Shown here: positions 14,053 through 56,069 of the stretch, piece after piece | How the letters are laid out: every line of letters starts with the position of its first letter | How positions within the stretch are numbered: the stretch's first letter is position 1 | DNA from: Azoarcus sp. Aa7 | Lineage (GTDB): Bacteria > Pseudomonadota > Gammaproteobacteria > Burkholderiales > Rhodocyclaceae | NCBI RefSeq assembly: GCF_014822185.1 | Contig: NZ_QVLR01000060.1 | Location: forward strand, 62,001 to 126,000 | Length of the DNA stretch: 64,000 bases | Direction: 5' to 3' | The notes under the pieces: generated by a model | The model's input: the letters and a program-made list of their open reading frames with translations, nothing else | What the model was told of the DNA's origin: nothing | Database searches by the model: none | Program-made: the position numbers and the translations under genes

Positions 14053-14088
14053 TGCTCCAAAACGGAACAGGTGCTGTCAATCAGAGCA
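14053..14088. promoter_or_regulatory. Tandem-dyad activator site between divergent sigma-54 promoters
   Basis: Two 17-bp dyads separated by 2 bp: TGCTCC-AAAAC-GGAACA at 14053-14069 and the weaker TGCTGT-CAATC-AGAGCA at 14072-14088. The first 17 bp recur exactly at 56053-56069. The site lies 97 bp before the dehydrogenase promoter and 41 bp from the opposing SoxYZ promoter. This placement suits an enhancer for a sigma-54 activator. Confidence 0.65.
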
Positions 14089-14184
14089 ATGAAAATCGCT
14101 AGATGTCTCCATATCGCCTTGAAAAACTCGTTCCTTGGGCCATGTTTCAGGAACCGGAAAGGATTTTCGGCGGCCGCGGCCCGG

Positions 14185-14199
14185 TGGCACGCCCTTTGC
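14185..14199 (+). promoter_or_regulatory. Sigma-54 promoter of the PQQ alcohol dehydrogenase
   Basis: TGGCACG-CCCT-TTGC, a full match to the -24/-12 consensus, 81 bases before the start codon. It is the best sigma-54 promoter in the window. Confidence 0.8.
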
Positions 14200-14279
14200 G
14201 AATCCTGTAGTCGAATCCGGTCGCCCGGTCAGGGAGGCGGTTTCCAACAATACGACGAGATTCGAAAAGGAGGATTCAA

Positions 14280-16076
14280 ATGGAGCAGATCCGGAAACGC
14301 GCAGGCTGGTCCGTCGCGGTGTCCGTCCTCGCGCTGTCCCTCGCAGGCATGGGGAGCGTGCAGGCCAAGGAGGTGACCAACGCGGACATCCTCGCGGACG
14401 GCACCAGCAACACCTCGCAGGTCGTCACCCACGGCCTCGGCACCAAGGGTCAGCGTTTCAGCCCGCTGGCGAAGGTCAACCCCCAGACGGTGAAGAACCT
14501 CGTGCCGGTGTGGTCGTTCTCGTTCGGCGGCGAGAAGCAGCGCGGCCAGCAGTCGCAGCCGATCGTGTTCGACGGCAAGATGTACGTGACCGCCTCCTAC
14601 AGTCGCATCTTCGCGCTCGACGTGAAGACCGGCGAGAAGTTGTGGAAGTACGAACACCGCCTGCCCGACGGCATCATGCCCTGCTGTGACGTGATCAACC
14701 GCGGTGCCGCGATCTACGGCAACCTGGTGATCTTCGGCACGCTCGACGCGCAGCTCGTCGCGCTGGACAAGGACACCGGCAAGGTCGTGTGGAAGGAGAA
14801 GATCGAGGACTACAAGGCGGGCTATTCCTTCACCGCCGCGCCCCAGATCGTCAAGGGCATGCTCATCACCGGCAACTCCGGCGGCGAGTTCGGCATCGTC
14901 GGGCGCGTGGATGCGCGCGATCCGAAGACCGGCAAGCTGATCTGGACGCGTCCGGTGGTCGAAGGCCACATGGGCTTCAAGTACGACAAGGACGGCAACC
15001 AGGTCGAGAACGGCATCTCCGGCACGACCAATGCCACCTGGCCGGGCGACCTGTGGAAGACCGGCGGCGCGGCACCGTGGCTGTCGGCCTACTACGATCC
15101 GGACGTGAACCTGATCTTCATCGGCACCGGCAACCCGGCGCCGTGGAACAGCTGGCTGCGTCCGGGCGACAACCTGTACTCGTCCTCGACCGTCGCGATC
15201 GATCCCGACACCGGCAAGATCGTGTGGCACTACCAGACCACGCCGCACGACGGCTGGGACTACGACGGCGTGAACGAATTCGTGTCCTTCGAGTACAAGG
15301 ATCCGAAGTCCGGCAAGATGGTCAAGGCGGGCGGCAAGGCGGACCGCAACGGTTTCTTCTTCGTCAATGACCGCACCAACGGCAAGCTGCTCAACGCCTT
15401 CCCGTTCGTGAAGCAGATCGACTGGGCCAAGGGCATCGACATGAACACCGGCCGTCCGATCTACAACGACGCCAAGCGCCCGGGCAATCCCTTCACCGAA
15501 GGCGGCGGCGACGGCAAGAAGGGCGAGGTGGTGCTGAACGCCCCGTCCTTCCTCGGCGGCAAGAACCAGATGCCGATGGCGTTCAGCCCGAAGACCGGCT
15601 ACTTCTACGTGCCGGCCAACGAGTGGGCGATGGACATCTGGAACGAGCCGGTGTCGTACAAGCGTGGCGCGGCCTACCTCGGCGCGGGCTTCACGATCAA
15701 GCCGCTCAACGAGGATTACATCGGCGCGCTGCGCGCGGTCGATCCGGTCAGCGGCAAGATCGTGTGGGAGGTGAAGAACAACGCGCCGCTGTGGGGCGGT
15801 GTGCTCGCCACCGGTGGCAACCTGGTGTTCTACGGCACCCCCGAGGGCTACCTGAAGGCGATCGACGCGACCAACGGCAAGGAAGTGTGGAAGTTCCAGA
15901 CCGGCTCCGGAATCATCGCGCCCCCGATCACCTGGGAAGACAACGGCGAGCAGTACGTCGCCGTGGTGTCCGGCTGGGGTGGTGCGGTGCCGCTGTGGGG
16001 CGGCGATGTCGCCAAGCGCGTGAACTTCCTCGAGCAGGGCGGTTCCGTGTGGGTGTTCAAGCTGCACAAACCCTGA
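14280..16076 (+). CDS. pedH: PQQ alcohol dehydrogenase, lanthanide-type (ExaF/PedH-like)
   Basis: Periplasmic quinoprotein of 598 residues oxidising alcohols to aldehydes and passing electrons to cytochrome c. A signal peptide ends near VQAKEV. The eight-bladed propeller shows repeated W-type motifs; the disulfide ring Cys135-Cys136 (MPCCDV) is present. Metal ligands are Glu in NSGGEFG, Asn in GTGNPAPWN and the catalytic Asp327 in HDGWDYDG. The residue two positions on is Asp329; calcium enzymes have Ala or Ser there, and known lanthanide enzymes (XoxF, ExaF, PedH) have Asp. Overall sequence is closer to the ExaA/ExaF ethanol dehydrogenases than to XoxF. AAAGGAGG precedes the ATG. No cytochrome domain is fused, so it depends on a separate one, perhaps that at 57000-57461. 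Confidence 0.93.
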
Positions 16077-16369
16077 GAGGCCACGAATAAATCTACTGCG
16101 CGACCCGATTTCGTCCCTGCGATGCTCACCGTACCACTTGTACGGCTGCGCTTCTCGGAACGAACTCGGGCCGCTCGCTACGATTTCTTCGTAACCTCTG
16201 ATTCGAGGGAAAGGCGGCTGGAGTCCAGCCGCGCCCGTCGCCCCGGTTCGCCGGGGTGGCCGGCTGAGCCTGCCTGGGCCTGCCAAATGGCGCCCGGGCG
16301 GGTTCAGCCGGCCATCTCGCCAACGCTTCAACTTCCGATTTTCCGCATCTCGCCAGAGAGGATCCGCAC
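16077..16369. other. Non-coding gap with three perfect inverted repeats
   Basis: No convincing gene. Three inverted repeats are visible: CCGTAC-N5-GTACGG at 16129-16145; an 8-bp stem with 3-base loop at 16214-16232 (GCGGCTGG/CCAGCCGC); and CCCCGG-TTCG-CCGGGG at 16241-16256, which would form a stable UUCG-type hairpin in RNA. They may end transcription after the dehydrogenase, but no T run follows. Confidence 0.4.
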
Positions 16370-17224
16370 GTGAAACGTCTCCCCCTGAAGTCGCTCGCTG
16401 CCGCGACCCTGCTTGCCCTCGCCGCGCAGTCCGCCACGGCCGTGGACCGCAGCACCCCGCGCGAAGCCCGCACGCTGTTCGACCAGGCGGTCAAGTACAT
16501 GGAAGCGAACGGCCCCGACCGCGCCTTCGCCGCCTTCAACGACCGTAGCGGCCAGTTCGTGCGCAAGGACCTGTACGTGTTCGTGATCGACGACAAGGGC
16601 GTCTACCAGGCGAGCGGCGCCGCACCCGAAGCGCTCGTCGGCCTGACCGTGCTGAACACCACCGATGCCGCCGGCAACCCGCTGTTCCGCGAGATGATCG
16701 ACAGCACGCGCGTCACGCCCGAGGCGACGGTGCGCTACATGTGGCTCAACCGCGTGACCAACAAGGTCGAGCCCAAGGTGAGTTACGTGCGCAAGATCGG
16801 CGGCTACGTGCTGGGCGTCGGCTACTCGGCTCCGCGTGCGAGCGCCGACGACGCCCGCGCGATGCTCGACCGCGCCGTCGCACTGGCGCGCAGCGAGGGC
16901 CATGCGAAGGCTGCCGCCGCGTTCAACGACCGCCGCGGCAGCTTCGTGAAGGACGACCTCTACGTGTTCATGGTGAACCTCGACAGCGGCAGGTTCGAGG
17001 CGATGGGCATGAATCCCGCTCTGTCGGACACCGATGCGAGCGGTCTCGCGGACGCCGAAGGCCACAAGATCGTCGCCGAAATGATCGAGAAGCTGAAGTC
17101 GGCCGATGCGGCCACCGTGGACTACGTGTGGCGCAACCCGGTGACCAATCGCGTCGAGAAGAAGCGCTCCTACGTGCGGCGCGAGAGCGGCTCGCTGATC
17201 GGCGTCGGCCACTACGTGGAGTAA
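16370..17224 (+). CDS. Periplasmic double Cache-domain protein
   Basis: Exported protein of 284 residues starting with GTG, preceded by AGAGAGGA. The signal peptide ends near ATAVDR. Two similar single-Cache (Cache_2-like) modules follow: each has an FNDRxGxFVKDDLYVFM-type segment (residues about 58-75 and about 185-200), a NPVTNRVEKKxSYVRR-type segment and a GYxxGVG/GVGHYV ending. There is no transmembrane or signalling domain, so it is a free ligand-binding protein rather than a receptor. It follows the PQQ dehydrogenase by 293 bases. A role in sensing or binding a small organic acid is possible but not shown. Confidence 0.8.
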   Translation: MKRLPLKSLAAATLLALAAQSATAVDRSTPREARTLFDQAVKYMEANGPDRAFAAFNDRSGQFVRKDLYVFVIDDKGVYQASGAAPEALVGLTVLNTTDAAGNPLFREMIDSTRVTPEATVRYMWLNRVTNKVEPKVSYVRKIGGYVLGVGYSAPRASADDARAMLDRAVALARSEGHAKAAAAFNDRRGSFVKDDLYVFMVNLDSGRFEAMGMNPALSDTDASGLADAEGHKIVAEMIEKLKSADAATVDYVWRNPVTNRVEKKRSYVRRESGSLIGVGHYVE

Positions 17225-17273
17225 GGCGCGGAAACATCGGGCGCCGGCAGTTGCGGCGCCGGGGGCGGGGAAA

Positions 17274-18155
17274 ATGGCAAGAACGAGGCAGGCGTTCCGA
17301 TGGATGTTGGTGCAGGCGCTGGTCGCCCTGTGGGCGCTGGCGGCCGTGGTGCCGCACGCGCGCGCAGGGGACGGAGCTGCGCCCATCGCGGGGCTGTCGG
17401 GCCTCACGATTCGCGTGGAAGGCGAGAACTGGGGCAGCGCCGCGCGTGACGAGGTCGAAACCCTGCTCAACGCCGTCGCGGACGAATTGACAGGGGGCGC
17501 TGCGCATGGACTCGTGAGCCCCATCGTTGTCCGCTACGCAGCGGGCGGTCCGGTGGCCCTGTTCGACAAGGGGCATGACGGCGAATACCGCGTGCATCTG
17601 TCCGCCCGCAATCGCGGCTGGGCGCAGTACGCGTACCAGTTCGGCCACGAGCTGTGCCACATCCTGTCGAACTACGACCAGCGTGCGCACGACGCGGCGC
17701 GGCGCACGACGCAGTGGTTCGAGGAGGCGCTATGCGAGGCCGCCGGTCTGTTCGTGCTGCGCAGCATGGCGGCGCGCTGGCGGACCGAGGCGCCGTATCC
17801 CGGGTGGGAGGCGTATGCGCCCAGCCTGGCCTCCTATGCCGAGCGTCTGGTCGCCGAGCCGCACCGGCAGTTGCCGGCGGACGTGTCCGCCGCTTCATGG
17901 CTGAAGACGCGGATGGCGGGGCTCGCCGCGGACCCGTATCGTCGCAACGACAACGAGATCGTCGCCAATCTGCTTCTTCCGCACTTCGAGCGCGACGCGG
18001 CACGCTGGGTCGTGCTGCGCTATCTGAACCTCGAAGCGGCCGGAACTGCCGACGGATTTGCCGCCTACGTCCGCGAGTGGCGCAAGGAAGTGCCCGACGA
18101 ACACCGGGCGTTCATCGACGCCCTCGCGAGTACGCTGGGCCTGGCCGAGGGATAG
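17274..18155 (+). CDS. Exported zincin-like protein with HELCH motif
   Basis: Protein of 293 residues with an N-terminal signal peptide (cleavage near ARAGDG). The sequence FGHELCHILSNY carries an HExxH zinc motif, and a possible third ligand Glu lies downstream in QWFEEALCEAAG, as in gluzincin-type peptidases. This suggests a periplasmic metallopeptidase or an inactive relative. The rest has no motif I recognise. It starts 49 bases after the Cache protein gene on the same strand. Function unknown. Confidence 0.65.
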   Translation: MARTRQAFRWMLVQALVALWALAAVVPHARAGDGAAPIAGLSGLTIRVEGENWGSAARDEVETLLNAVADELTGGAAHGLVSPIVVRYAAGGPVALFDKGHDGEYRVHLSARNRGWAQYAYQFGHELCHILSNYDQRAHDAARRTTQWFEEALCEAAGLFVLRSMAARWRTEAPYPGWEAYAPSLASYAERLVAEPHRQLPADVSAASWLKTRMAGLAADPYRRNDNEIVANLLLPHFERDAARWVVLRYLNLEAAGTADGFAAYVREWRKEVPDEHRAFIDALASTLGLAEG

Positions 18156-18173
18156 GGGCGACGCCGGGCCCGC

Positions 18174-18476
18174 TCAGCGGAATCCGCTCGGATCGCGGTC
18201 CATGATGGCGTTGCGCAGGCGGATCTCGAGCGCCAGGCGCTGCACGTAGCGATCCATCTCGCGGTCGCCGACGGCGCTTGCCCGCGGGCCTTCGTCACCA
18301 CTGAGGCCGGGGCGGCCGAACACGCCCGAGTCTTCCTTCAGCTTCATCCCTTCATCGATTGCCCGGGCCTGCCGGTCGAAGGATGCATCGCTGACCGCGT
18401 CGGCGGCGACGGCGGACGGGAGCGCCAGGATCAGCGCTGCACCGAGCAGGGCCAGTACGGCGGATTTGTGTGTCAT
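18174..18476 (-). CDS. Small exported protein of unknown function
   Basis: 100-residue protein with a signal peptide (MTHKSAVLALLGAALILAL, cleavage near AVAAD). The mature part is charged, with DREMDRYVQRLALEIRLRN likely helical. GGGAGAG lies upstream of the ATG at 18476. The gene converges on the zincin gene with 18 bases between them. No family recognised. Confidence 0.6.
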   Translation of the reverse strand: MTHKSAVLALLGAALILALPSAVAADAVSDASFDRQARAIDEGMKLKEDSGVFGRPGLSGDEGPRASAVGDREMDRYVQRLALEIRLRNAIMDRDPSGFR

Positions 18477-18825
18477 GAGTCTCTCCCGGGTAAGTGGCTC
18501 CCTGATGATCGATTGTGTTTGCGGCATTGCCGTGTCGGGTAAGTCCACTATAGGTGAGCGGTCCCCGGATATCTGTAGAGGGGGCGCCAGCGGTGGGTGA
18601 CATTCATTCCCCACCAGACGTGGGGAAAGGGCGGGGAAAGGGCGGGGGAAAATCCCCGCACCAGATACCTTGAAACCCGTATGTGATCCGCGTTTTTGTA
18701 TGAAAAGCATATAAAAAACAAATAGATAATATCTTGGTACATTTGATGCTCAAGGGTGCTTGCGCACGAGAGCTATTTCACTCGCCAGTCCGGTGAGGTC
18801 TCCCGCGCATCGACAGGAGCACGAA
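18477..18825. other. Divergent intergenic region with AT-rich block and repeats
   Basis: No gene seen. The left part has an 8-bp inverted repeat TTCCCCAC-N5-GTGGGGAA at 18607-18627 followed by repeats of GGGGAAAGGGC up to about 18650. The block from about 18690 to 18745 is much richer in A and T than the rest of the window (for example CATATAAAAAACAAATAG). It is a likely promoter and nucleoid-protein binding region for the large exported protein. Confidence 0.5.
18735..18749 (+). promoter_or_regulatory. Possible sigma-54 promoter
   Basis: TGGTACATTTGATGC keeps the GG and GC elements at the right spacing and matches the -24/-12 consensus at most positions. It lies 77 bases before the start codon at 18826 and next to an AT-rich block. 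Weaker than the sites near the alcohol oxidation genes. Confidence 0.35.
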
Positions 18826-21135: not shown

Positions 21136-21593
21136 TTGCAGCAAAGCGCGGCGGGCTTCCGCTCGCTGCGTATCCACGCGCCGCCCGGGGCAAATCCGGG
21201 CGACGCCCTCTGCCTGCTGCGGGGGCACGCCGCGCCTGACGCCCCCTCCGCACTTTCGCCATCCGGCCGATTGCACGCTGCGCAGGCAGCCCCCGATTAC
21301 AGTTTTGCGACATTTGCTATCAGCTTTGAACCCTTCGACGCGGCACCCCCGGCTGCGGACGAACCGGATTGACAGCAGGTGATCCTTGGCGCTATGTGGG
21401 TTTGCGCGGACTTCGCCGCGGTCCGCGTCGATTTAGTGCGCTGCAAAAACGCGGAGAGCTCGCATTGTTGCGCTGGGGTTTTTTTGCCACTATTCGCAGC
21501 GTTTCCTGTTGTTGACCTTTTGTTGTCATGGTCTTTCGGGCGGCCGGCCTCGCCGGCACGAAAAATCTGCGAAATACTCGTGAGGAATACCGG
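21136..21593. other. Intergenic region before the arginine operon
   Basis: No supported gene. A 7-bp inverted repeat CGCCCGG-N7-CCGGGCG at 21182-21202 may end the upstream transcript. Base composition falls from GC-rich to mixed from about 21290, with a run of seven T at about 21479-21485; the promoter of the aot-like operon should lie in this right half. Confidence 0.4.
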
Positions 21594-22385: not shown

Positions 22386-22399
22386 TCGCCACCTCGAAG

Positions 22400-45705: not shown

Positions 45706-47328
45706 TCAGGCCGCGTTCTCGAACAGTTCCGGCGGGATGTCCTCGGGGCACAACTGGCTGGCCTCGTCCCCCATCAGCGCGAGCATGAGGCGCAGTTGGT
45801 TGCGCAGCTCGCGCAGGTTGCCCGGCCAGCGGTGGCGGTGCAGCAGCGCAAGCGCGTCGGGGCACACGTAGACCGGTCGTCCGGCGGCGGCCTCGCGCAC
45901 GAAATGGCGCACGAGCGCGTCGAAATCGTCGCGCTCGCGCAGCGGCGGCAGGCTGATGATCCGGCCGCCCGCCGCCTCGAAGTTGCGCAAATCGAGTCGT
46001 CCCTCGCGGCGCAGCTCGGCGAGCGGCCGCCGTGCCGCGCCGATCACGCGCGCGCGGCTGCCGTCGTGGGCGTCGAAGAGCCGCGCCTGCAGCGTGGCGG
46101 GCAGTGCGTCGATCTCAACGAGGAACAGGATGCCGTTGGCCGCCTGCATCCAGGCGCGATCCAGTTCCGCCTCCGCAGCCTCCCCGGCGGGCAGGGCGGT
46201 GCAGTCGATGCCGATCAGCGGTGCGTCCGTGGTCGGTTTGTGGTCTTCATGGAACGCGCGCACGAGATGCGCCTTGCCGGTTCCCATCTCGCCTTCGATC
46301 AGCAGCGGCATGTTTTCCGCGGCGCAGTCGCGCAGCGTGTCGACGATGCGCGCCATGCGTTCGTCGCCGTGAGCGATCGCGCCGAGGCGGGAATCGTCGT
46401 CGCGGGCCGTGGCGCTGCGCGGCCCCGTGTCGGCGTGGCGCCGCGACCGCAGCTTGGCGCGGGCGATGAGCGTGCGGCCTTTCAGGTCGTAGAGCGGAAA
46501 GGGCGCGTCGGGCGCCTGCGCTGCCCAGCCGACGAGGCTGCTCCACGGTGTCGCAAAACAGGCTTCATAAGCCGCCGCGGGGCGGCGCGCGTCCAGACCG
46601 AGCAGCCCGCGCGCCTTGCGATTGCTCGCAACGAGCCGGCCGCCTTCGTCGAACACGACGAGCGCGTGCAGGGGATCGGACAGCGCATCGCGGCGCGTGT
46701 GGAAGTGCAGGGTGAGGAAACCGTCGTCGAGCGTTTCCAGCAGGCGGTGTTCGATCAGCTCGGCCGTGGTGCGCAGCAGCGCCTCGGCATGGGTCAGGTT
46801 CTCGTGCGCGTCCGACGACACGTCGAGGATGCCGAGCATGCCGCCCGTGGGGGCGAGGATGGGCGTCGCGACGCAGGTCAGGATGCGGTTGCGCGCGAGG
46901 TAGTGCTGGTCGCCCTGCACGGTGACGACCGTTCCCGTGTGCAGCGCCGTGCCGATCGCGTTCGTGCCCATCGTCGCCTCGCTCCAGTCGACGCCGGGCC
47001 GCAGTGCGACGCGGGTCGCGCGGTCGAGGAAGTCGGTGTGGCCCAGCGCACTGAGGATCATGCCCTGACGGTCGGCCAGCAGCACCGTGGATGAGGGGCT
47101 GCCAATCTGGCGGTACAGGCCTTCGATCATCGGGCGCGAGAACGCGAGCAAGCGGTTGTTCGCGGCGATCCGGTCAGTGAGTTCGCCCGGCGCGAGCGCC
47201 GTGTCGTTGAGCGGTTCGTCCGGACGCAGGCCGTGCTCGCGGCTGCGCTGCCACGATGCGATGAGCGGTTCCGGTCGGGATGTGGGGGGTGAAGCTTCCA
47301 TCATGGGGAGCGATGAAGCATGAATCAT
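45706..47328 (-). CDS. Degenerate AcoR-like regulator lacking sigma-54 loop and DNA-binding domain
   Basis: Protein of about 540 residues from the methionine at 47328 (start uncertain; the frame continues to 47604). The N-terminal GAF-type sensor (RPMIEGLYRQIGSPSSTVLL, ATMGTNAIGTALHTG) and a PAS-like region match AcoR. The AAA domain is eroded. Walker A reads GEMGTGKA; the segment that should hold ELFGY and GAFTGA is absent; Walker B is LFLVEID instead of LFLDEIG. It ends at PPELFENAA without the usual Fis-type helix-turn-helix. It therefore should not bind DNA or activate sigma-54 by itself, but could sense a ligand and modulate another regulator. It is divergent from the aldehyde dehydrogenase. 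Confidence 0.8.
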   Translation of the reverse strand: MIHASSLPMMEASPPTSRPEPLIASWQRSREHGLRPDEPLNDTALAPGELTDRIAANNRLLAFSRPMIEGLYRQIGSPSSTVLLADRQGMILSALGHTDFLDRATRVALRPGVDWSEATMGTNAIGTALHTGTVVTVQGDQHYLARNRILTCVATPILAPTGGMLGILDVSSDAHENLTHAEALLRTTAELIEHRLLETLDDGFLTLHFHTRRDALSDPLHALVVFDEGGRLVASNRKARGLLGLDARRPAAAYEACFATPWSSLVGWAAQAPDAPFPLYDLKGRTLIARAKLRSRRHADTGPRSATARDDDSRLGAIAHGDERMARIVDTLRDCAAENMPLLIEGEMGTGKAHLVRAFHEDHKPTTDAPLIGIDCTALPAGEAAEAELDRAWMQAANGILFLVEIDALPATLQARLFDAHDGSRARVIGAARRPLAELRREGRLDLRNFEAAGGRIISLPPLRERDDFDALVRHFVREAAAGRPVYVCPDALALLHRHRWPGNLRELRNQLRLMLALMGDEASQLCPEDIPPELFENAA

Positions 47329-47397
47329 TCCGTCGGCGTCGAACCGCGCGATCAAAAGGGTTTCTGCGGAAGCGGGGGGTGCGTAGTGCGGCGCCGT

Positions 47398-47433
47398 TGT
47401 CACGCATCGGAACAGGTGTTGCCTTGTTGAACA
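47398..47433. promoter_or_regulatory. Tandem-dyad activator site before the aldehyde dehydrogenase
   Basis: TGTCAC-GCATC-GGAACA (47398-47414), two bases, then TGTTGC-CTTGT-TGAACA (47417-47433). It has the same 36-bp layout as the sites at 14053, 49423 and 56034, and lies 114 bp before the sigma-54 promoter at 47547. Confidence 0.6.
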
Positions 47434-47546: not shown

Positions 47547-47561
47547 TGGCACGCGCCCTGC
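47547..47561 (+). promoter_or_regulatory. Sigma-54 promoter of the aldehyde dehydrogenase
   Basis: TGGCACG-CGCC-CTGC matches the -24/-12 consensus with one change, 66 bases before the start codon. GG and GC are correctly spaced. Confidence 0.7.
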
Positions 47562-47626
47562 GGAAGGGATGGCGACGCGAGACAGCGTTTCGACTAATCA
47601 ACAACGCACTTCTGGAGACGAGTTCA

Positions 47627-49129
<1,503 letters not shown>

Positions 49130-49147
<18 letters not shown>

Positions 49148-49188
49148 GCGCGTTACCAGGACCGCGCGCTCGGGTTCTTCTGAGCGCG
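49130..49188 (+). repeat. Direct duplication of the aldehyde dehydrogenase 3' end
   Basis: A 23-base block covering the last codons and stop (49130-49152) is repeated at 49166-49188 with one mismatch, 36 bases on. Each copy contains the arms GCGCTC and GAGCGC and can fold into a hairpin. Confidence 0.7.
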
Positions 49189-49273
49189 GAGGCGGCCGGG
49201 CGCAGCATTTCGGCGCCCGCTTGGCTCATGTTGTTCTTCTCTCCCTCTCCTCCGCCTACAGCGGAAGAGCTTC

Positions 49274-49300
49274 ACGGGCGGCTCCGGCCGCCCGTTTTTT
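49274..49300 (+). terminator. Intrinsic terminator after the aldehyde dehydrogenase
   Basis: ACGGGCGG and CCGCCCGT form an 8-bp stem with a 6-base loop, followed by a run of T. It separates the aldehyde dehydrogenase from the ABC operon. Confidence 0.8.
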
Positions 49301-49422
49301 CACCGCATCGCTGCGGCAAGGAGCGAGCGCGCTTCTCGCGAACGCGGGCTGATCGTGCACTATGCTTGAAGCGGGTTTCGGATCTGCCCGACGTGCCCGC
49401 AATGCGTCGTCTTGCCGGCAGG

Positions 49423-49458
49423 TGTTCCGAAATGGAGCAGCTGTTCCGTGGTGGAGCA
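49423..49458. promoter_or_regulatory. Tandem-dyad activator site before the ABC operon
   Basis: TGTTCC-GAAAT-GGAGCA (49423-49439), two bases, then TGTTCC-GTGGT-GGAGCA (49442-49458). These are the most regular copies of the element. It is 42 bp before a weak sigma-54-like site at 49500 and 124 bp before the first start codon. Confidence 0.7.
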
Positions 49459-49499
49459 CCCGATTCCGCAGGCGACGGATTGGCGGAGCCTTCGCCGGC

Positions 49500-49514
49500 T
49501 GGATCGAATCCTGC
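49500..49514 (+). promoter_or_regulatory. Possible sigma-54 promoter of the ABC operon
   Basis: TGGATCG-AATC-CTGC keeps GG and GC at the right spacing but misses three other consensus positions. It lies 68 bases before the ATG at 49582, downstream of the activator site. Confidence 0.4.
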
Positions 49515-49581
49515 ATTGGAAACACGACCGTCCCCGGCTCGATCCGGCGGGCGTTGACACAAGAACGATGGAGACACATCA

Positions 49582-50574
49582 ATGCTGCGACCGTTTGCGC
49601 GCGCGTGCCTTGCCGCGGCTGCGTTCCTTGCCTGCCTGATTGCGCCGGTGCGCGCTGCCGACCCGGCGCCGATCCGCATCGGCGTGCTGCAGTACGGCAC
49701 GGTGAGCTGGGAGCTCGAGGTGATGAAGCGGCAGGGCTACGCCGAACGCGAGGGCGTGCGGATCGAGGTCGTGCCGCTCGCGCAGAAGGACGCCGCGAAC
49801 GTCGCGCTGCAGGGCGGGGCGGTCGATCTCATCGTCAATGACTGGATCTGGGTCGCACGTCAGCGCGCCGAAGGGCGGGATTTCGCCTTCGTGCCCTACT
49901 CGCGCGCGGTGGGCGGCATCATGGTGCGCCCGGACGCCAACGTGCGCACGCTCGCGGATCTGCGCGGGCAACGCCTGGGCGTGGCCGGTGGCGCGCTGGA
50001 CAAGAGCTGGCTGCTGCTGCGGGCGTGGTCGCGCAGGACGGTCGGCGAGGACGCCGCGACCTTCCTGAAGCCCGATTTCGGCGCGCCGCCGCTCCTCAAC
50101 GCCTTGATGCTGAAGGGCGAACTGCCCGCGGTGATGAACTTCTGGCACTTTTCCGCGCGCCTGCGTGCCGCCGGCATGCGCGAGCTGCTCACGCTGGACG
50201 ACATCCTGAAGGGCTTGGGCGTCGACGGCGAGCTGCCGATGATCGGCTGGGTGTTCCGTGAGGACTGGGCGGCGAAGAACCGTGCCGCCTTCGAGGGCTT
50301 CCTGCGCGCCGGCGCGCAGGCGCGCCGCCACATGCAAAGCTCGGATGCGGTGTGGGAGGAGTTGCGTCCGCTCACCCGCGCCGAGGACGACGCGACGCTC
50401 GTGGCGCTGCGCGACGGGTTCCGTGCCGGCATTCCCGGCGAGGACATCGCGCAGGCCGAACGCACCGCGCGGCGCGTGTTCTCGATCCTCGCCGAGGAGG
50501 GCGGCGCCGAACTCGTCGGCAGCGCCACGACCCTGCCCGCGGGCACCTTCTGGCGTGCGGGTGGGGCCCGCTGA
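49582..50574 (+). CDS. NitT/TauT-type ABC substrate-binding protein
   Basis: Periplasmic binding protein of 330 residues, first gene of a seven-gene operon. The signal peptide ends near PVRAADP. RIGVLQYGTVSWELEVMKRQG, GGAVDLIVNDWIWVARQRA and LADLRGQRLGVAGG follow the pattern of sulfonate/nitrate/aliphatic substrate-binding proteins (SsuA/TauA type). The ligand is unknown. Because the operon continues into pedA1A2BC-like genes and has the same activator site as the alcohol oxidation genes, the ligand is probably related to quinoprotein function (metal chelate, cofactor or alcohol). That is inference. The stop overlaps the next start as TGATG. Confidence 0.82.
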   Translation: MLRPFARACLAAAAFLACLIAPVRAADPAPIRIGVLQYGTVSWELEVMKRQGYAEREGVRIEVVPLAQKDAANVALQGGAVDLIVNDWIWVARQRAEGRDFAFVPYSRAVGGIMVRPDANVRTLADLRGQRLGVAGGALDKSWLLLRAWSRRTVGEDAATFLKPDFGAPPLLNALMLKGELPAVMNFWHFSARLRAAGMRELLTLDDILKGLGVDGELPMIGWVFREDWAAKNRAAFEGFLRAGAQARRHMQSSDAVWEELRPLTRAEDDATLVALRDGFRAGIPGEDIAQAERTARRVFSILAEEGGAELVGSATTLPAGTFWRAGGAR

Positions 50575-51395
50575 TGAAGGCAGGCGCCGATGACTCCGCG
50601 CCCTGGCCGGTCGCGCCCATGAGCGCCCGCCCGGCTCTCCGGCGCCTGCGGCCGCAAGGTGACGGCTGGCTGCGCGCGGCCTCGCTCGCCGCCTTCCTCG
50701 CGCTGTGGCAGCTCGCCGCGTGGCTCTTCGCCAGTTCCACCCTGCCTCCGCCGGCCACCGTCTTCACGCGCATCGCCGCCGAGACCGCCTCGCTCGCGCT
50801 GCCCACGCATCTGGCCATCACGCTTGCGCGCGTCGCGGTCGCCTTCGGGCTGGCGATGGCCCTCGGCGCCACGATCGGCATCGCCATGGGGCGCTGGCGC
50901 CGGCTCGATGCGCTCCTCGACGGCTGGCTCGTGCTCGGGCTCAACATCCCCGCGCTCGTCACCATCATCCTGTGCTACGTGTGGTTCGGTCTCAACGACG
51001 CCGCCGCGATCGTCGCCGTCGCGCTGAACAAGATCCCGACCGTCGTCGTCACCGTGCGGGAAGGTGCCCGCGCGGTCGATGCCCGCCTGATGCAGGTCGC
51101 CCACGCCTATCGGCTGCCGCGGCTGCGCACCTTCACCCGCGTCTATCTGCCCCAGCTCGTCCCCTACCTGATGGCCGCGGCGCGCTCGGGGCTGTCGCTG
51201 ATCTGGAAGATCGTGCTCGTCGTCGAGCTCCTCGGGCGCAGCAACGGCGTGGGCTTCCAGCTCAACATGTTCTTCCAGCTCTTCGACATTGCCGGCATCC
51301 TCGCCTATACGCTCGTGTTCGCCGCGGTCGTGCTCGTCGTCGAAGCGGCCGTCCTGCGCCCGCTCGAGCGGCGGCTCACGCGCTGGAGATCCTGA
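50574..51395 (+). CDS. NitT/TauT-type ABC permease
   Basis: Inner-membrane permease of 273 residues with about six transmembrane helices. The EAA-type loop is in RLMQVAHAYRLPRLRTFTRV (with YLPQL after it). LWKIVLVVELLGRSNGVGF and the preceding region match SsuC/TauC permeases. The start at 50574 overlaps the previous stop; an internal ATG at 50619 would still include all helices. The next gene follows immediately. Confidence 0.85.
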   Translation: MKAGADDSAPWPVAPMSARPALRRLRPQGDGWLRAASLAAFLALWQLAAWLFASSTLPPPATVFTRIAAETASLALPTHLAITLARVAVAFGLAMALGATIGIAMGRWRRLDALLDGWLVLGLNIPALVTIILCYVWFGLNDAAAIVAVALNKIPTVVVTVREGARAVDARLMQVAHAYRLPRLRTFTRVYLPQLVPYLMAAARSGLSLIWKIVLVVELLGRSNGVGFQLNMFFQLFDIAGILAYTLVFAAVVLVVEAAVLRPLERRLTRWRS

Positions 51396-52169
51396 ATGCT
51401 CGACATCGCCATCGACCGCAAGACCTACCCCGACCGCGCCGGCGCCCCGCATCTGGCGCTCGCCGGGCTGCACCTCGAGGCCGCCCCGGGCGAGTTCGTG
51501 TGCGTTGTCGGCCCCTCGGGCTGCGGCAAGAGCACGCTGCTCAACGTCGTCGGCGGGCTCGACCGCGACGTCGAAGGACGCGTGCGCCTTGGCGGCGCCC
51601 CGTTCGCCGACTCCACGCACGACATCGGCTTCATGTTCCAGGAGCCGCGCCTGATGCCCTGGCTCACGGTGCTGGAGAACGTGCTCCTCGTCACCGACGC
51701 GAGCGCCGCGGCGCAGCGGCGCGCGCGCGAACTCCTCGCCGCGATGGGGCTCGCCGACGTGCTCGACGCCTACCCCGGGCGGCTCTCCGGCGGCATGCAG
51801 CGGCGTGTCGCGCTCGCACGCGCCTTCGTGATCGAACCGAAGCTCCTCCTCATGGACGAGCCCTTCGTCTCGCTCGATGTGCCCACCGCCAACCGCCTGC
51901 GCGCGATGTTGGTCGAACAGTGGCAGCGCTCGGGCGCGACGGTGCTCTTCGTTACCCACGACCTGCGCGAAGCGCTCGCGCTCGCCGACCGCATCTGCTT
52001 CCTGTCGGCCGCCCCCGGGCGCGTCGTGCTCGAACTCCCCCTCGCGCTCGCGCGCCCGCGCGCCCCCGACGATGCCGCGGTGCAGGCGCTGCACGCCGAG
52101 CTCCTTGCCCGGCACCCCGAGCTCCTCGCCGGGCTCGCCAGCGACCCGGACGGGACCAAGGATGAATGA
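51396..52169 (+). CDS. NitT/TauT-type ABC ATPase
   Basis: ATPase of 257 residues pairing with the preceding permease. Walker A is GPSGCGKST, the Q-loop is in MFQEPRLMPW, the signature LSGGMQRR has Met in place of the more usual Gln, Walker B is LLLMDEPFVSLD and the H-loop is FVTHDL. The start is directly after the permease stop. The end overlaps the next ATPase gene by 8 bases, so two ABC systems are joined in one transcript. Confidence 0.87.
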   Translation: MLDIAIDRKTYPDRAGAPHLALAGLHLEAAPGEFVCVVGPSGCGKSTLLNVVGGLDRDVEGRVRLGGAPFADSTHDIGFMFQEPRLMPWLTVLENVLLVTDASAAAQRRARELLAAMGLADVLDAYPGRLSGGMQRRVALARAFVIEPKLLLMDEPFVSLDVPTANRLRAMLVEQWQRSGATVLFVTHDLREALALADRICFLSAAPGRVVLELPLALARPRAPDDAAVQALHAELLARHPELLAGLASDPDGTKDE

Positions 52170-52962
52170 GCGCATGAACACTGCCGTCGACGCACCCCCC
52201 CTCACCCCCGATTCGGCGCAGGCGGGCGCCGCGCTCGAGCTCGCCGATGTGCGCAAGGCCTACGGCACGCGCGAGGCGCTGCGTGGCGTCACGCTCAAGG
52301 TCGACCGTGGCGAATTCGTCGCGCTGCTGGGGCCCAACGGTGCGGGCAAGAGCACGCTGTTCCAGCTCCTGACCGGGCTCTTCAACGCCGACTCCGGGCG
52401 GCTCGCCGTGTGCGGCCACGACATCCGCAAGGCCCCGGTCGCCGCGCTCGCGCACCTGGGCGTCGTGTTCCAGCAGAGCACGCTCGACCTCGATCTGGGC
52501 GTCGCCGCGAACCTGAAATTCCACGCCGCGCTGCACGGCTTGGGTGGGCGACACGCACGCGAACGCGTCGCCGACGCGCTGGGCCGCCTCGGCCTCACCG
52601 AACGCGCGAACGACCCCGTGCGGGAGCTCTCCGGTGGCAACCGCCGCAAGGTCGAGCTTGCGCGTGCGCTGGTGCACGAGCCGGCCGTGCTGCTGATGGA
52701 CGAGGCAACCGTCGGCCTCGACCCGGCCTCGCGCCGCCAGCTCCTCGACGAGGTGCTGGCGCTGCGTGCGCGCGGCGTCGGCGTGCTTTGGGCGACCCAC
52801 CTTGTCGATGAGGCAGAGGCCGCCGACCGCGTCATCGTGCTGCACCGCGGCCAGATCCTCGCCGAGGGCGCCCCGCAGGCACTCGCCGCGCAGGCCGGCA
52901 CGGCCACCCTCGCCGACGCCTTCCTGCAGATGACCGGCGGCGGCAGCGAGCGCAGCGACTGA
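52162..52962 (+). CDS. pedA1: PQQ-dehydrogenase-associated ABC ATPase (PedA1-like)
   Basis: ATPase of 266 residues. Walker A is GPNGAGKST, the Q-loop is in VVFQQSTLDLDLG, the signature is LSGGNRRK, Walker B is VLLMDEATVGLD and the H-loop is WATHLV. This export-type (DrrA/CcmA-like) ATPase belongs to the group found with PQQ alcohol dehydrogenases. In Pseudomonas putida KT2440 the matching system PedA1A2BC is reported to be needed for growth at low lanthanide. It overlaps the preceding ATPase gene by 8 bases. The permease partner is the pedC-like gene at 55213. Confidence 0.85.
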   Translation: MNERMNTAVDAPPLTPDSAQAGAALELADVRKAYGTREALRGVTLKVDRGEFVALLGPNGAGKSTLFQLLTGLFNADSGRLAVCGHDIRKAPVAALAHLGVVFQQSTLDLDLGVAANLKFHAALHGLGGRHARERVADALGRLGLTERANDPVRELSGGNRRKVELARALVHEPAVLLMDEATVGLDPASRRQLLDEVLALRARGVGVLWATHLVDEAEAADRVIVLHRGQILAEGAPQALAAQAGTATLADAFLQMTGGGSERSD

Positions 52963-53017
52963 ACGCCTACAAACCAAAAAAACCGTCCTGGAAATCCGAC
53001 CCCGAGAGGAGACCCGC

Positions 53018-53995
53018 TTGATTCCCCGCACCCGACTCATCGCCGCCGGCGTCCTCGCGCTCGCTGCCGGCGCCGCCACCGCCAAGGGCACCGGCTACGT
53101 GTTCGTCAGCAGCGAGAACGACCATGCCGTGACCGTGCTCGACAGCAAGACCTGGCAGGTCGTGAAGACCATCGCCACCGGCCAGCGCCCGCGCGACATG
53201 CGCCTGTCGCCCGACGGCAGCCAGATCTATGTGGTCGCGAGCAAGGCCAACCGCGTCGACGTCATCGACATCGCCCAGCTCAAGGTGAGCCACAGCATCC
53301 CCGTCGGCGAGGATCCGGAGATGTTCGACCTCTCGCCCGACGGCAAGCGCCTCTACGTCTCGAACGAGGAGGGCGCGCAGGTGTCCGTGATCGATGTCGC
53401 GACGAAGAAGTCGGTCGCGCGTATCGAGGTCGGCGAGGAGCCCGAAGGGGTGCGCCTGTCGCCCGACGGCAAGCGCGTGTATGCGACCTCCGAGGTCGCG
53501 AACATGGTGCACGTCATCGACACCACGACCCACAAGATCCTCGCCAACGTCGTCGTCGCCAACCGCCCGCGCCGCTTCGCGATGACGCCGGACGGCGCCG
53601 AAGTGTGGGTCACCTCCGAACTCGGCGGCAAGGTCACGGTGCTCGACGGCGCCACGAACGCGGTCAAGGCGACGGTCGCCTTCACGCCCAAGGGCTTCCG
53701 CGCCGACGATGTCACCCCCGTCGGCATCGCGATGACGGGCGACGGCAAGACCGCGTACGTCACGCTCGGGCGCGCCAACCACATTGCCGTCGTCGACGTC
53801 GCCAGCCGCAAGGTCGAGGACTACGTGCTCGTGGGCAACCGCGCGTGGGGCGCGACACTCAACCGCAACGGCAGCCTGCTCTTCGTTGCCAACGGCCTGT
53901 CCGACGACATCTCCATCGTCGACACCAAGACCCGCAAGGTGCTGCGCTCGGTGCCGGTCGGGCGCGTGCCGCACACCGTCGTGATCGACGACTGA
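53018..53995 (+). CDS. pedA2: Exported beta-propeller protein (YVTN repeats, PedA2-like)
   Basis: Exported protein of 325 residues; the signal peptide ends near GAATAKG. Seven YVTN-type repeats follow, each near 42 residues with RLSPDGKRxYV-type strands (DMRLSPDGSQIYVV, MFDLSPDGKRLYVS, GVRLSPDGKRVYAT). This forms a periplasmic seven-bladed propeller. The group is known as PQQ-dependent catabolism-associated propeller proteins. The start ATT-CCC-CGC is reached by TTG at 53018 after GGAGG, an unusual but well-placed start. Its role in the transporter is unknown; it may bind the ligand or the dehydrogenase. Confidence 0.85.
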   Translation: MIPRTRLIAAGVLALAAGAATAKGTGYVFVSSENDHAVTVLDSKTWQVVKTIATGQRPRDMRLSPDGSQIYVVASKANRVDVIDIAQLKVSHSIPVGEDPEMFDLSPDGKRLYVSNEEGAQVSVIDVATKKSVARIEVGEEPEGVRLSPDGKRVYATSEVANMVHVIDTTTHKILANVVVANRPRRFAMTPDGAEVWVTSELGGKVTVLDGATNAVKATVAFTPKGFRADDVTPVGIAMTGDGKTAYVTLGRANHIAVVDVASRKVEDYVLVGNRAWGATLNRNGSLLFVANGLSDDISIVDTKTRKVLRSVPVGRVPHTVVIDD

Positions 53996-54008
53996 GGGCG
54001 GACGACCC

Positions 54009-55196
54009 ATGCGCACCCGCCAGAACCTGCTCCTGCGAGTCGTCCTCGGCAGCCTCGCCGCGCTCGTCGCCGCCTCCGCGTTCGCGGCGACCAGCGTGCG
54101 CCTCGCCCACCTCGAACTCGAAACCGATTCCCGCTACGACGAGACGAAGCTCTTCTTCCGCGGCCTCGCCCAGCCCCTCGGGCGGCCCTTCGCCGGCGCG
54201 GAAGTCGCGCTGCGCGAGGCGCGTTTCGTCGGCCTGGCGGTCGGCGCCGAATTCGCGCTCGAACGCGTCGCCGGCGCCGATGCGAAGGCGCTCCTCGCCG
54301 CGATCGACAAGCTCAACAAGGAAGGGGTGCGCTACTTCCTCCTCGATGCCCCCGGCGCCGTCGTCGCCGAGCTCGCCAAAGCCGTGCGGGGCAAGGAACT
54401 CCTGCTCTTCAACGTCTCCGCCCCCGACGACGCGCTGCGTCAGGCCCTGTGCCAGCCCAACCTGCTGCACACGCTGCCGAACGACGCGATGCGCATGGAT
54501 GCGCTCGCGCAGTACCTGGTGTCGAAGAAGTGGAGGAACGTGCTGATGCTCGAGGGCCCGCGCCCCGAGGACAAGCTCGTCGCCGACGCCTTCGATCGCG
54601 CCGCCAAACGCTTCGGCCTGAAACTCGTCGAGCGCCGCCCCTTCGTGCTCTCCAACGACCCGCGCCAGCGCGACCAAGGCAACGTCGCGCTGCTCACGGC
54701 CGGCTCCGATCACGACGTCGTCTTCGTCGCCGACAGCGACGGCGAGTTCGCCCGCAGCGTTCCCTACCGCACGGTGCGTCCGCGCCCGGTCGTCGGCGGC
54801 GAAGGCCTCGCCGCGGCCGCGTGGTCCTGGGCGTGGGAGCGCCACGGTGCACCGCAATTGAACAGTCGCCTCGAGAAACACGCCGGCCGCAAGATGGCAG
54901 ACCCCGACTGGGCCGCGTGGATGGCGGTGAAGGCGGTCGTCGAGGCGGTCGTGCGCACGCAGAACGGCCCCTTCGGCACCGTCGCGAAATACCTCAAGGG
55001 CGAGGAGATCACGCTCGACGGCTTCAAGGGCAACCGTCTCGGCTTCCGCCCCTGGGACAACCAGCTGCGCCAGCCCATCCTGCTCGCGACCCACAACGCG
55101 GTGATCGAGCGCGCGCCGATCGCGGGCTTCCTGCATCCGACCAACAACCTCGACACCCTCGGCTTCGACCAGCGCGACAGCCGCTGCGCGTTCTGA
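54009..55196 (+). CDS. pedB: PQQ-system ABC periplasmic binding protein (PedB-like)
   Basis: Periplasmic type-I binding-protein-like product of 395 residues with a signal peptide (cleavage near ASAFAAT). It resembles branched-chain amino acid binding folds: VRLAHLELETDSRYDETKLF, KEGVRYFLLDAPGAVVAELA and KKWRNVLMLEGPRPEDKLVA. Members are found only beside PQQ alcohol dehydrogenase genes. It starts 13 bases after the propeller gene. As part of a Ped-type system the ligand may be a lanthanide complex, or the protein may serve an exporter; the sequence does not decide. Confidence 0.83.
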   Translation: MRTRQNLLLRVVLGSLAALVAASAFAATSVRLAHLELETDSRYDETKLFFRGLAQPLGRPFAGAEVALREARFVGLAVGAEFALERVAGADAKALLAAIDKLNKEGVRYFLLDAPGAVVAELAKAVRGKELLLFNVSAPDDALRQALCQPNLLHTLPNDAMRMDALAQYLVSKKWRNVLMLEGPRPEDKLVADAFDRAAKRFGLKLVERRPFVLSNDPRQRDQGNVALLTAGSDHDVVFVADSDGEFARSVPYRTVRPRPVVGGEGLAAAAWSWAWERHGAPQLNSRLEKHAGRKMADPDWAAWMAVKAVVEAVVRTQNGPFGTVAKYLKGEEITLDGFKGNRLGFRPWDNQLRQPILLATHNAVIERAPIAGFLHPTNNLDTLGFDQRDSRCAF

Positions 55197-55212
55197 ACCG
55201 GAATCCCGCCCC

Positions 55213-56025
55213 ATGAGACTCTCCCACGCATGGCTCGCGCTGCAGGCGATCGCCGGCCGCGAGATCGCCAAGTTCGTCCGCCAGGGCGGGCGCTTCGCCT
55301 CGGCGCTGGTGCGGCCGCTGCTGTGGCTGGTCGTCTTCGCGGCGGGCTTCCAGAACGTCTTCGGGGTGTCCATCATCCCGCCCTACGACACCTACATCCC
55401 GTACCAGGTCTACATCGTGCCGGGGCTGCTGGGCATGGTGCTGCTCTTCAACGGCATGCAGTCCTCGCTCGCGATGGTGTACGACCGCGAGATGGGCATG
55501 ATGCGGCTGCTCTTGACTGCGCCGCTGCCGAGGAGTTTTCTCCTCTTCGCCAAGCTCCTCGCCGGCACCCTGCTGTCGGTGCTGCAGGCCTACGTCTTTC
55601 TCGTGATTGCGTGGTTCTTCGGCGTCGAAGTGCCGTGGCGCGGCTGGCTCACCGCGCTGCCGGTCGTGGTCCTCGCCGGCATGATGCTCGGCGCGCTGGG
55701 GCTGCTGCTGTCGGTGCAGGTGCGCCAGCTGGAGAACTTCGCCGGCACCATGAACTTCGTCATCTTCCCGATGTTCTTCGTCTCGCCCGCGCTGTATCCG
55801 CTGTGGAAACTCGAGGAATCCGGCGCCGCCATCGTGCATGCGGTCGCGCAGTGGAACCCCTTCACCCACGCCGTCGAGGCGATCCGCTTCGCGCTCTACG
55901 GCCAGCTCGCCGGCACCTCGCTGGCGATCGTCGCCGTCTGCCTCGCGGTCTTCTTCACGCTCGCCGTGCGCGGCTACGATCCGCAACGCGGCATGCTCAA
56001 GCGTGCGGGTGGCAAGCCGGCCTGA
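55213..56025 (+). CDS. pedC: PQQ-system ABC-2 permease (PedC-like)
   Basis: ABC-2-type permease of 270 residues with six transmembrane helices. YDREMGMMRLLLTAPLPRSFLLFAKLL, divided by its helix ends, and MNFVIFPMFFVSPALYPLW are typical of this family, which usually exports substrates. It completes the PedA1A2BC-like system and is the last gene of the operon. A tandem-dyad site and a strong bidirectional terminator follow at once. Confidence 0.87.
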   Translation: MRLSHAWLALQAIAGREIAKFVRQGGRFASALVRPLLWLVVFAAGFQNVFGVSIIPPYDTYIPYQVYIVPGLLGMVLLFNGMQSSLAMVYDREMGMMRLLLTAPLPRSFLLFAKLLAGTLLSVLQAYVFLVIAWFFGVEVPWRGWLTALPVVVLAGMMLGALGLLLSVQVRQLENFAGTMNFVIFPMFFVSPALYPLWKLEESGAAIVHAVAQWNPFTHAVEAIRFALYGQLAGTSLAIVAVCLAVFFTLAVRGYDPQRGMLKRAGGKPA

Positions 56026-56033
56026 CCTGCTCC

Positions 56034-56069
56034 TGTCACACCGTGGAACAGGTGCTCCAAAACGGAACA
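56034..56069. promoter_or_regulatory. Tandem-dyad activator-like site between convergent genes
   Basis: TGTCAC-ACCGT-GGAACA (56034-56050), two bases, then TGCTCC-AAAAC-GGAACA (56053-56069). The second dyad is identical to the one before the alcohol dehydrogenase and the first half-site TGTCAC equals that before the aldehyde dehydrogenase. No promoter is seen beside it. Confidence 0.6.

What the first reader, a model, noticed from the sequence alone, without database searches (positions are those of the whole stretch)
14053..56069. Four copies of a 36-bp tandem-dyad element define a scattered alcohol-oxidation regulon
At 14053-14088, 47398-47433, 49423-49458 and 56034-56069 I see the same design: two 17-bp dyads near TGYTCC-N5-GGARCA with exactly 2 bp between them, each element 36 bp. 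A 17-bp dyad is identical at two of the sites 42 kb apart. Three lie before the PQQ dehydrogenase/SoxYZ, aldehyde dehydrogenase and PedABC-type operons. This looks like one enhancer site for one regulator.
Basis: seen in the sequence. Interest (0 to 1): 0.85.

Follow-up and report, generated by a model that had tools for sequence, protein, structure and literature searches.

The report
Enhancer sites of an alcohol-oxidation regulon
Five copies of one 36-base DNA switch site sit in this bacterial gene cluster for alcohol oxidation, and related bacteria carry the same site beside the same regulator gene, so it is most likely the docking site through which that regulator turns the pathway on; one recurrent copy lies where no nearby promoter can be seen and is unexplained.

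Summary
The four elements are real and far beyond chance. Model searches found no other good copy in the 5.39-Mb genome, apparently of the Aromatoleum lineage. Of 30 EBP1-orthologue upstream regions, 21 score >=18/24 at the 19-bp spacing, against at most 5 at any other spacing; 0 of 20 distant paralogues reach 16. Elements recur before pedF, exaC, the PedABC-type operon, PQQ dehydrogenase/SoxYZ and, in two relatives, a tungsten aldehyde oxidoreductase operon, mostly 41-150 bp from a sigma54-type promoter. EBP1 has such a promoter too, with the element about 30 bp downstream of it in 18 of 24 gaps. Correction: 56034 is not before an operon. It belongs to a recurrent class at the pedF operon's 3' end (21 sites, none with a sigma54 site >=13 within 220 bp). 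A second EBP-like protein beside exaC (45706-~47400, minus) has lost its HTH and sigma54-contact loop. A new regulon of a known kind, with two unexplained features.

The parts
14053..14088 (.). Element A, tandem dyad in the divergent gap between SoxYZ-like carrier (-) and PQQ alcohol dehydrogenase (+)
   Evidence: same gap in G044 (L066 3359) and G091 (L072 18697)
14185..14200 (+). sigma54-type -24/-12 site TGGCACGCCCTTTGCG towards PQQ dehydrogenase
13996..14011 (-). sigma54-type -24/-12 site TGGCACACCCCTTGCT towards SoxYZ and metallohydrolase genes
13149..13940 (-). quinoprotein-associated SoxYZ-like carrier
   Evidence: TIGR04557, (read this gene in a wrong frame and are void for it)
12166..13152 (-). 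quinoprotein relay system zinc metallohydrolase
   Evidence: TIGR04558
14280..16076 (+). PQQ-dependent alcohol dehydrogenase; GWDYDG motif
   Evidence: TIGR03075; motif
47398..47433 (.). Element B between EBP2 (-) and exaC (+)
47547..47562 (+). sigma54-type site TGGCACGCGCCCTGCG towards exaC
47627..49147 (+). acetaldehyde dehydrogenase ExaC
   Evidence: NF050026, 952 bits over cut-off 900
45706..47400 (-). EBP2: GAF plus degenerate AAA+, no GAFTGA loop, no canonical Walker B, no HTH (start uncertain)
49423..49458 (.). Element C, perfect 24/24, before the PedABC-type ABC operon
49500..49515 (+). weak sigma54-like site TGGATCGAATCCTGCA (12.2 of 14.9), 41 bp from element C; same spacing in G044 and G095
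49582..56025 (+). PedABC-type operon (NMT1-like SBP, ABC ATPase, PQQ-associated beta-propeller, PQQ_ABC_bind, PedC permease)
56034..56069 (.). Element D, no sigma54 site >=13 within 220 bp, between convergent gene ends
56088..56132 (.). long perfect hairpin flanked by A- and T-runs, terminator-like
   Evidence: sequence; compensatory change in G044
56168..57010 (-). PedG-like periplasmic solute-binding protein
   Evidence: PF00497
57000..57461 (-). cytochrome c550 PedF
   Evidence: TIGR04494, 209 bits over cut-off 122
57505..57520 (-). sigma54-type site TGGCACAGGGCTTGCG towards pedF
57579..57594 (+). sigma54-type site TGGCAGGAAACTTGCT towards EBP1; element E begins 30 bp after it
57625..57660 (.). 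Element E (new here), between pedF and EBP1
57714..59753 (+). EBP1: GAF, sigma54-activator AAA+ (GSFTGA), Fis-type HTH; proposed binder

Best explanation
The 36-bp element is the activating sequence of EBP1, a GAF-AAA+-Fis activator of sigma54 encoded at 57714-59753. Two EBP1 dimers probably sit side by side on the two TGT-N11-ACA dyads and seed the AAA+ oligomer (inferred). On sensing a pathway metabolite, perhaps an alcohol or aldehyde (inferred), EBP1 contacts sigma54-RNA polymerase at a -24/-12 site, mostly 41-150 bp away (sites shown, contact inferred). It thereby turns on PQQ alcohol dehydrogenase/SoxYZ, exaC, the PedABC-type operon and pedF-pedG together. Element E also lies 30 bp downstream of a sigma54-type site that faces EBP1 itself, a layout kept in most relatives, so EBP1 probably controls its own gene, up or down (direction not known).
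For: Five sites at one fixed spacing versus 0.017 expected. No further site below E 0.8 in the genome. EBP1 has the sigma54-activator domain, GSFTGA and HTH_8; rpoN is present. Of 30 EBP1-orthologue upstream regions 21 score >=18 at spacing 19 (27 score >=17, one of them, L043, off register); every other spacing 14-44 gives at most 5; 0 of 20 distant paralogues reach 16. R1 hits go with EBP1: 22 of 27 hit genomes vs 17 of 123; 27 of 41 R1 sites outside the own genome lie within 15 kb of an EBP1 gene. Of 78 elements, 46 have an outward-facing sigma54 site scoring >=13 within 220 bp versus 0.8% of shuffled flanks; 24 of 24 pedF/EBP gaps and 10 of 11 exaC sites do. 19 of 24 gaps also have an EBP1-facing site >=13, 18 of them ending 27-33 bp before the element.
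Against: No binding or expression data. 14 of 41 R1 sites outside the own genome are not within 15 kb of an EBP1 on the same contig. Fourteen of 39 EBP1 genomes gave no R2 hit at the strict cut-off. Some relatives have a second intact EBP beside exaC with its own element, so not every site need be EBP1's. The LuxR-type regulator at 10160 co-occurs too (34 of its 35 genomes are EBP1 genomes). Element D and its kin have no clear promoter nearby. Element C's promoter is weak.
Confidence: 0.85

Rival explanations
1. The elements are bound by the LuxR/NarL-type response regulator (10160-10807) of the neighbouring two-component pair, as AgmR/PedR-type regulators control ped/exa genes in Pseudomonas.
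For: The response regulator is found in 35 of 150 family genomes, 34 of them EBP1 genomes. In Pseudomonas the ped cluster is run by the LuxR-type AgmR (passages of PMC12997753).
Against: Elements lie next to EBP1 in relatives and stand near sigma54-type promoters. Of the 25 R2-positive genomes, G035, G091 and G147 have no response-regulator match at 1e-70 (at most 20 candidates per genome scored), but all 25 have EBP1 (R2 is partly circular). TGT-N10-12-ACA dyads are the form reported for many EBP sites (PMC6615313 passages).
Confidence: 0.06
2. A mixed system: EBP1 and other EBPs (the exaC-adjacent EBP3 of some relatives; EBP2 as a non-DNA-binding partner here) share the same elements.
For: EBP3 proteins with an HTH close to EBP1's stand beside exaC with an element between. 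EBP2 is conserved next to exaC and shares the element gap.
Against: The own genome has no second match to EBP1 at 1e-100 (7 of 48 candidates scored), and EBP2 has no HTH. No direct data.
Confidence: 0.3
3. A mobile or dispersed repeat, or chance similarity among GC-rich intergenic sequence.
For: Two 17-mers 42 kb apart are identical.
Against: 0.017 expected per window; no other good genome copies found; sites in other genera keep dyads and spacing while spacers vary.
Confidence: 0.01

Closest known systems
AcoR operator of Bacillus (about 30-bp palindromic region with paired sites 1/2 and 1'/2'; passages of PMC10018347)
   Same: Activator with HTH, ATP-binding and sigma54-recruiting parts; compact operator of paired parts, where removing part 1 or 2 abolished the response in that paper's mammalian-cell assay
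   Different: Annotated neighbours here are PQQ alcohol oxidation genes, not an aco operon; EBP1 passes no NCBIfam cut-off among the 25 of 29 rows shown. Letters of the AcoR site were not compared
EBP sites TGT-N10-12-ACA in Clostridiales, including AdhR of adhA (passages of PMC6615313 and PMC7017808)
   Same: Dyad form TGT-N11-ACA upstream of a -24/-12 promoter of an alcohol gene
   Different: AdhR promoters have three predicted sites; here two dyads at a fixed 19-bp centre spacing over many genera
BmoR/Pbmo, alcohol-responsive EBP of Thauera butanivorans (passages of PMC8899819)
   Same: Alcohol-linked sigma54 EBP of a betaproteobacterium
   Different: Controls alkane monooxygenase; deleting its putative site left butanol response in that paper; sequence not compared here
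ped/exa regulation in Pseudomonas (AgmR/ErbR; passages of PMC12997753)
   Same: Same kinds of structural genes: PQQ dehydrogenase, pedF, pedG, PedABC, SoxYZ
   Different: LuxR-type and two-component control there; sigma54-EBP control inferred here

Membership tests
bacterial enhancer-binding-protein (sigma54) regulon | AAA+ sigma54-activator domain with GAFTGA-type loop | tested here: met
   PF00158 216 bits; GSFTGA at residue 424
bacterial enhancer-binding-protein (sigma54) regulon | Fis-type C-terminal HTH | tested here: met
   PF02954, residues 638-677
bacterial enhancer-binding-protein (sigma54) regulon | dyad activating sequence near targets | tested here: met
bacterial enhancer-binding-protein (sigma54) regulon | -24/-12 promoter near each element | tested here: inconclusive
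   Window: clear for A (both sides), B, E (both sides); weak for C (12.2 of 14.9); none >=13 within 220 bp for D. Outward-facing, all contexts: 46 of 78 at >=13
bacterial enhancer-binding-protein (sigma54) regulon | rpoN in the genome | tested here: met
   PF04552, E 1.3e-66
bacterial enhancer-binding-protein (sigma54) regulon | EBP binds the element and activates the promoter | not testable with these tools
   needs footprint, shift or reporter assays
AcoR (acetoin regulator) | control of an adjacent acetoin dehydrogenase operon | tested here: not met
   neighbours of EBP1 are pedF and the Fe-S/AOR operon
AcoR (acetoin regulator) | N-terminal GAF sensor with AAA+ and HTH | tested here: met
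   PF01590 residues 82-208; that AcoR has this layout is partly recalled
AcoR (acetoin regulator) | acetoin as effector | not testable with these tools
   ligand unknown

The most novel reading that the evidence does not exclude
The pedF operon is bracketed by an EBP1 element at each end: one between the sigma54-type promoters of pedF and EBP1, one at its 3' end with no clear sigma54 promoter nearby. EBP1 oligomers on the two would pair and close the operon (1.4 kb here, up to about 3 kb in relatives) into a regulatory loop, or use the 3' site as a remote enhancer or roadblock against convergent transcription. EBP2, a conserved EBP that has lost both its DNA-binding domain and its sigma54-contact loop, would tune this by entering mixed rings with EBP1.
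Probability: 0.15. Interest if true: 0.75.

Novelty: new member of a known kind. Interest (0 to 1): 0.55.

Why it matters
PQQ/ped alcohol oxidation is known mainly from Pseudomonas, where LuxR-type and two-component regulators run it (PMC12997753 passages). This points to a separate sigma54 solution in Rhodocyclaceae-type bacteria, joining a dehydrogenase with the DYD motif (lanthanide type by recall), a PedABC-type transporter (PedA1A2BC is called a lanthanide transporter in PMC12997753), ExaC, cytochrome c550 and, in some, a tungsten aldehyde oxidoreductase. It supplies a 36-bp motif and a candidate regulator ready to test. The recurrent sites at the operon's 3' end are a natural case for asking whether sigma54 enhancers act from there.

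Tried and rejected
Dispersed repeat or chance: rejected by the spacing test, whole-genome model search and cross-genus conservation. Helical phasing of the element-to-promoter distance: 51 distances, no significant 10.5-bp periodicity (Rayleigh p 0.36; best of eight periods p 0.04 at 12 bp); dropped. A sigma54 promoter of a small gene or sRNA at the 3'-end sites: 0 of 21 have a site >=13 within 220 bp on either strand; 6 of 21 have one of 12.0-12.7 there, and 12 is reached by 10.9% of shuffled outward flanks, more when both strands are read; 7 of 21 have a site >=13 within 1.6 kb, five of these including the pedF promoter itself by my reading. Spread outside the family: of 300 genomes of the order, 3 had an R2 match at E<=0.003, one outside the family (G213, not followed beyond its score), and 5 an EBP1 match at 1e-180, one outside the family (G239, 52%). 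A weak extra dyad at 14007 overlaps the minus-strand sigma54 site; not pursued. Literature searches for this regulon or motif found no description. That library lacks most subscription journals, so this is no proof of absence. Papers were seen only as search listings or as passages by term search (PMC8899819, PMC10018347, PMC6615313, PMC12997753, PMC7017808, PMC13390443); none was read whole.

First pass on upstream regions mis-oriented minus-strand loci and was replaced. Pfam/NCBIfam results for protein 6 are void (wrong frame), redone. Searches failed on my coordinate errors, on a term, because the paper is not held, because fields were missing.

Limits of the counts: model R2 and the position matrix were built from sites in EBP1 loci, so only R1 (five window sites) tests association without that circularity. 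The EBP1 set of 39 genomes is my own cut's listing (near-full-length, >=54% identity); partial matches (G065, G093) and G032 (52%) were left out, with the effect given above. Genome and site lists were copied by hand. The 40 stretches were chosen because they had an R1 hit or an EBP1 gene, so counts on them are no random sample; among the eight pedF loci fetched for EBP1 alone (L090, L091, L092, L094, L096, L097, L098, L100) seven have the 3'-end element (my reading). Sites of 15-20 bits and one overlapping register in L090 were dropped before the counts on 78. E-values of the models are rough. Genome searches score only the best first-look candidates. The sigma54 consensus and weights and the meaning of the DYD motif are recalled, not from a call.
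Full report
What is there. The four elements are exactly as described. Each is two 17-bp dyads with centres 19 bp apart. Scoring the window against TGYTCC-N5-GGARCA finds a fifth at 57625-57660; five places reach 19/24 or more, against 0.017 per resampled window (60 resamplings), and no other spacing in the scan 12-69 has more than two such places.

Surroundings. Element A (14053) lies in the divergent gap between a SoxYZ-like carrier and a PQQ alcohol dehydrogenase, with a good sigma54 -24/-12 site facing each gene. Element B (47398) lies between exaC (NF050026) and a second EBP-like gene. Element C (49423, perfect) precedes the PedABC-type operon, with a weak -24/-12 site 41 bp on. Element E (57625) lies between pedF (TIGR04494) and EBP1 (57714-59753), with one sigma54 site facing pedF (57505-57520) and one facing EBP1 (57579-57594). 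Element D (56034) lies about 9 bp after the end of the PedC-type permease gene and about 100 bp after the end of the convergent pedG-like gene, beside a long hairpin.

Whole genome. A model built from the five elements in both orientations (R1) finds, in the 5.39-Mb genome, only these five sites with E below 0.8; the next are at E about 1. A broader model (R2) agrees. In both searches only the best 150 first-look candidates were scored. So the regulon, as seen, is local to this cluster.

Comparison. In 150 genomes of the family, R1 hits 27 at E<=0.05, and near-full-length EBP1 of at least 54% identity is present in 39 (my cut, which lists 80 genomes at 1e-100). R1-hit genomes carry EBP1 in 22 of 27 versus 17 of 123 (p 1.6e-11; p 1.4e-10 with three borderline genomes added). 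For R2, which is partly circular, it is 25 of 25 versus 14 of 125. Of 41 R1 sites outside the own genome, 8, 20 and 27 lie within 1, 5 and 15 kb of an EBP1 gene. The other 14 include sites on other contigs of fragmented genomes, more distant cluster parts, sites by 45-49% EBPs and probable false hits (at E<=0.05 per genome, about 7 are expected over 150).

Upstream of the regulator. For 30 EBP1 orthologues (54-100% identity, own included), 460 bp around the match start were scored: 21 reach 18 or more at spacing 19 and 27 reach 17 (L043 off register), while no other spacing from 14 to 44 has more than 5 at 18. For 20 distant paralogues (35-43%) none reaches 16. In one search's loci, Aromatoleum toluclasticum (92%) and five others of at least 54% identity (L127-L130, L136) have an element within about 210 bp before the match; the more distant L131-L205 have none at 18 bits, L131 having almost no upstream sequence.

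Regulon content. Forty stretches were labelled with window proteins. With the five window sites this gives 78 elements of at least 20 bits; a shuffled control of 640 kb peaked at 12.8 bits. Contexts: pedF/EBP gap 24, exaC 11, PedABC-type operon 7, PQQ dehydrogenase/SoxYZ 5, AOR operon 2, EBP with unknown other side 5, one other, and 23 where no labelled gene starts. An outward-facing sigma54 site of 13 or more within 220 bp occurs in 24/24, 10/11, 3/7, 4/5, 2/2, 3/5, 0/1 and 0/23 of these; overall 46 of 78 against 0.8% of shuffled flanks.

The regulator's own promoter. In 19 of 24 pedF/EBP gaps a sigma54 site of 13 or more also faces EBP1; in 18 of them it ends 27-33 bp before the element, so the element lies just downstream of it. 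Three more gaps have such a site at 12.9 and two (L082, L096) have none at 12. The EBP1-facing distance is nearly fixed, the pedF-facing one varies from 66 to 172 bp. An activator site just downstream of its own sigma54 promoter could mean self-activation or self-limitation; the sequence does not say which.

The 3'-end class. Of the 23 elements where no labelled gene starts, 21 (20 loci, the window's element D and its congener G044 among them) lie at the 3' end of the pedF operon, after pedG, a beta-propeller gene or a cytochrome b561-like gene, often facing the end of an exaC - DUF779-like - cytochrome c run (the last three names are my reading of the ORFs). The 23 average 30.4 bits, against 33.3 for pedF/EBP gaps and 26.8 for exaC sites. 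None of the 21 has a sigma54 site of 13 or more within 220 bp on either strand; 7 have one within 1.6 kb, mostly the pedF promoter. Weaker sites (12.0-12.7) occur in 6 of 21, and as element C's site scores 12.2, a weak promoter is not fully excluded. Five of the 24 pedF/EBP loci lack a 3'-end element (L068, L069, L072, L084, L096). In G045 (L105) the site in this place stands before the Fe-S/AOR genes and does have a sigma54 site, so one lineage uses the position as a promoter. In three Aromatoleum-type genomes the second dyad of D is invariant; the first differs in spacer and flank, most in G044, yet stays a dyad. This suggests constraint, but three sequences are few.

EBP2. The protein divergent from exaC (45706 to about 47400, minus) keeps GAF and Walker A but lacks the GAFTGA loop, a canonical Walker B and the HTH. 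The same holds in all nine proteins examined, the window's included (five of the nine aligned). In L071 and L087 GAF-only relatives stand opposite the PedABC-type operon. EBP2 cannot bind the element through a Fis-type HTH, which leaves EBP1 as the only EBP I found in this cluster that can.

Mechanism. Shown: sites, spacing, sigma54-type promoters, regulator domains, rpoN, co-conservation. Inferred: EBP1 dimers on each dyad, oligomer formation, looping to sigma54 polymerase, an alcohol or aldehyde signal, self-control at element E. Not explained: the 3'-end sites and EBP2.

Known or new. The kind (sigma54 EBP with dyad sites of the form TGT-N10-12-ACA) is known (PMC6615313 passages), and a compact paired operator is reported for AcoR (PMC10018347 passages). 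I found no description of this regulon in nine searches that returned lists. I file it as a new member of a known kind; the 3'-end class and EBP2 could make it a variant if shown to work.

Noticed in passing
window 45706-47400 (-); L067 914-2461, L068 2389-4008, L085, L086, L090, L091, L092, L094: A conserved EBP-like protein beside exaC that has lost the GAFTGA loop, canonical Walker B and the HTH in all nine proteins examined, window included: possibly a non-DNA-binding partner of EBP1.
   Followed up: partly
window 56034-56069 and 20 sites in 19 other loci: A recurrent element at the 3' end of the pedF operon with no sigma54 site >=13 within 220 bp, about as strong as promoter-linked ones.
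   Followed up: partly
window 57579-57594 (+): sigma54-type site facing EBP1, 30 bp before element E; 18 of 24 gaps keep this layout.
   Followed up: partly
window 56088-56132: Long perfect hairpin with A- and T-runs on its two sides between convergent genes; G044 has a compensatory pair change. Looks like a two-way terminator.
   Followed up: no
window 14280-16076: PQQ dehydrogenase carries GWDYDG; by recall the DYD aspartate marks lanthanide-dependent enzymes, and the regulon also holds a PedABC-type transporter.
   Followed up: no
window 59783-59798 and 59851-63560: Fe-S/tungsten AOR/FAD reductase operon right after EBP1 with a weak sigma54-like site (GGGCATGGTATTTGCC, 12.2) but no element of its own here; G104 (L075 4397) and G045 (L105 278) do have one before theirs.
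   Followed up: partly
window 10160-12176 (-): Histidine kinase/LuxR-type response regulator pair; the regulator's presence tracks EBP1 (34 of 35 genomes): perhaps a second layer of control.
   Followed up: partly
L071 13202-14176, L087 6510-7037: GAF-only AcoR-like proteins divergent from the PedABC-type operon across an element.
   Followed up: no
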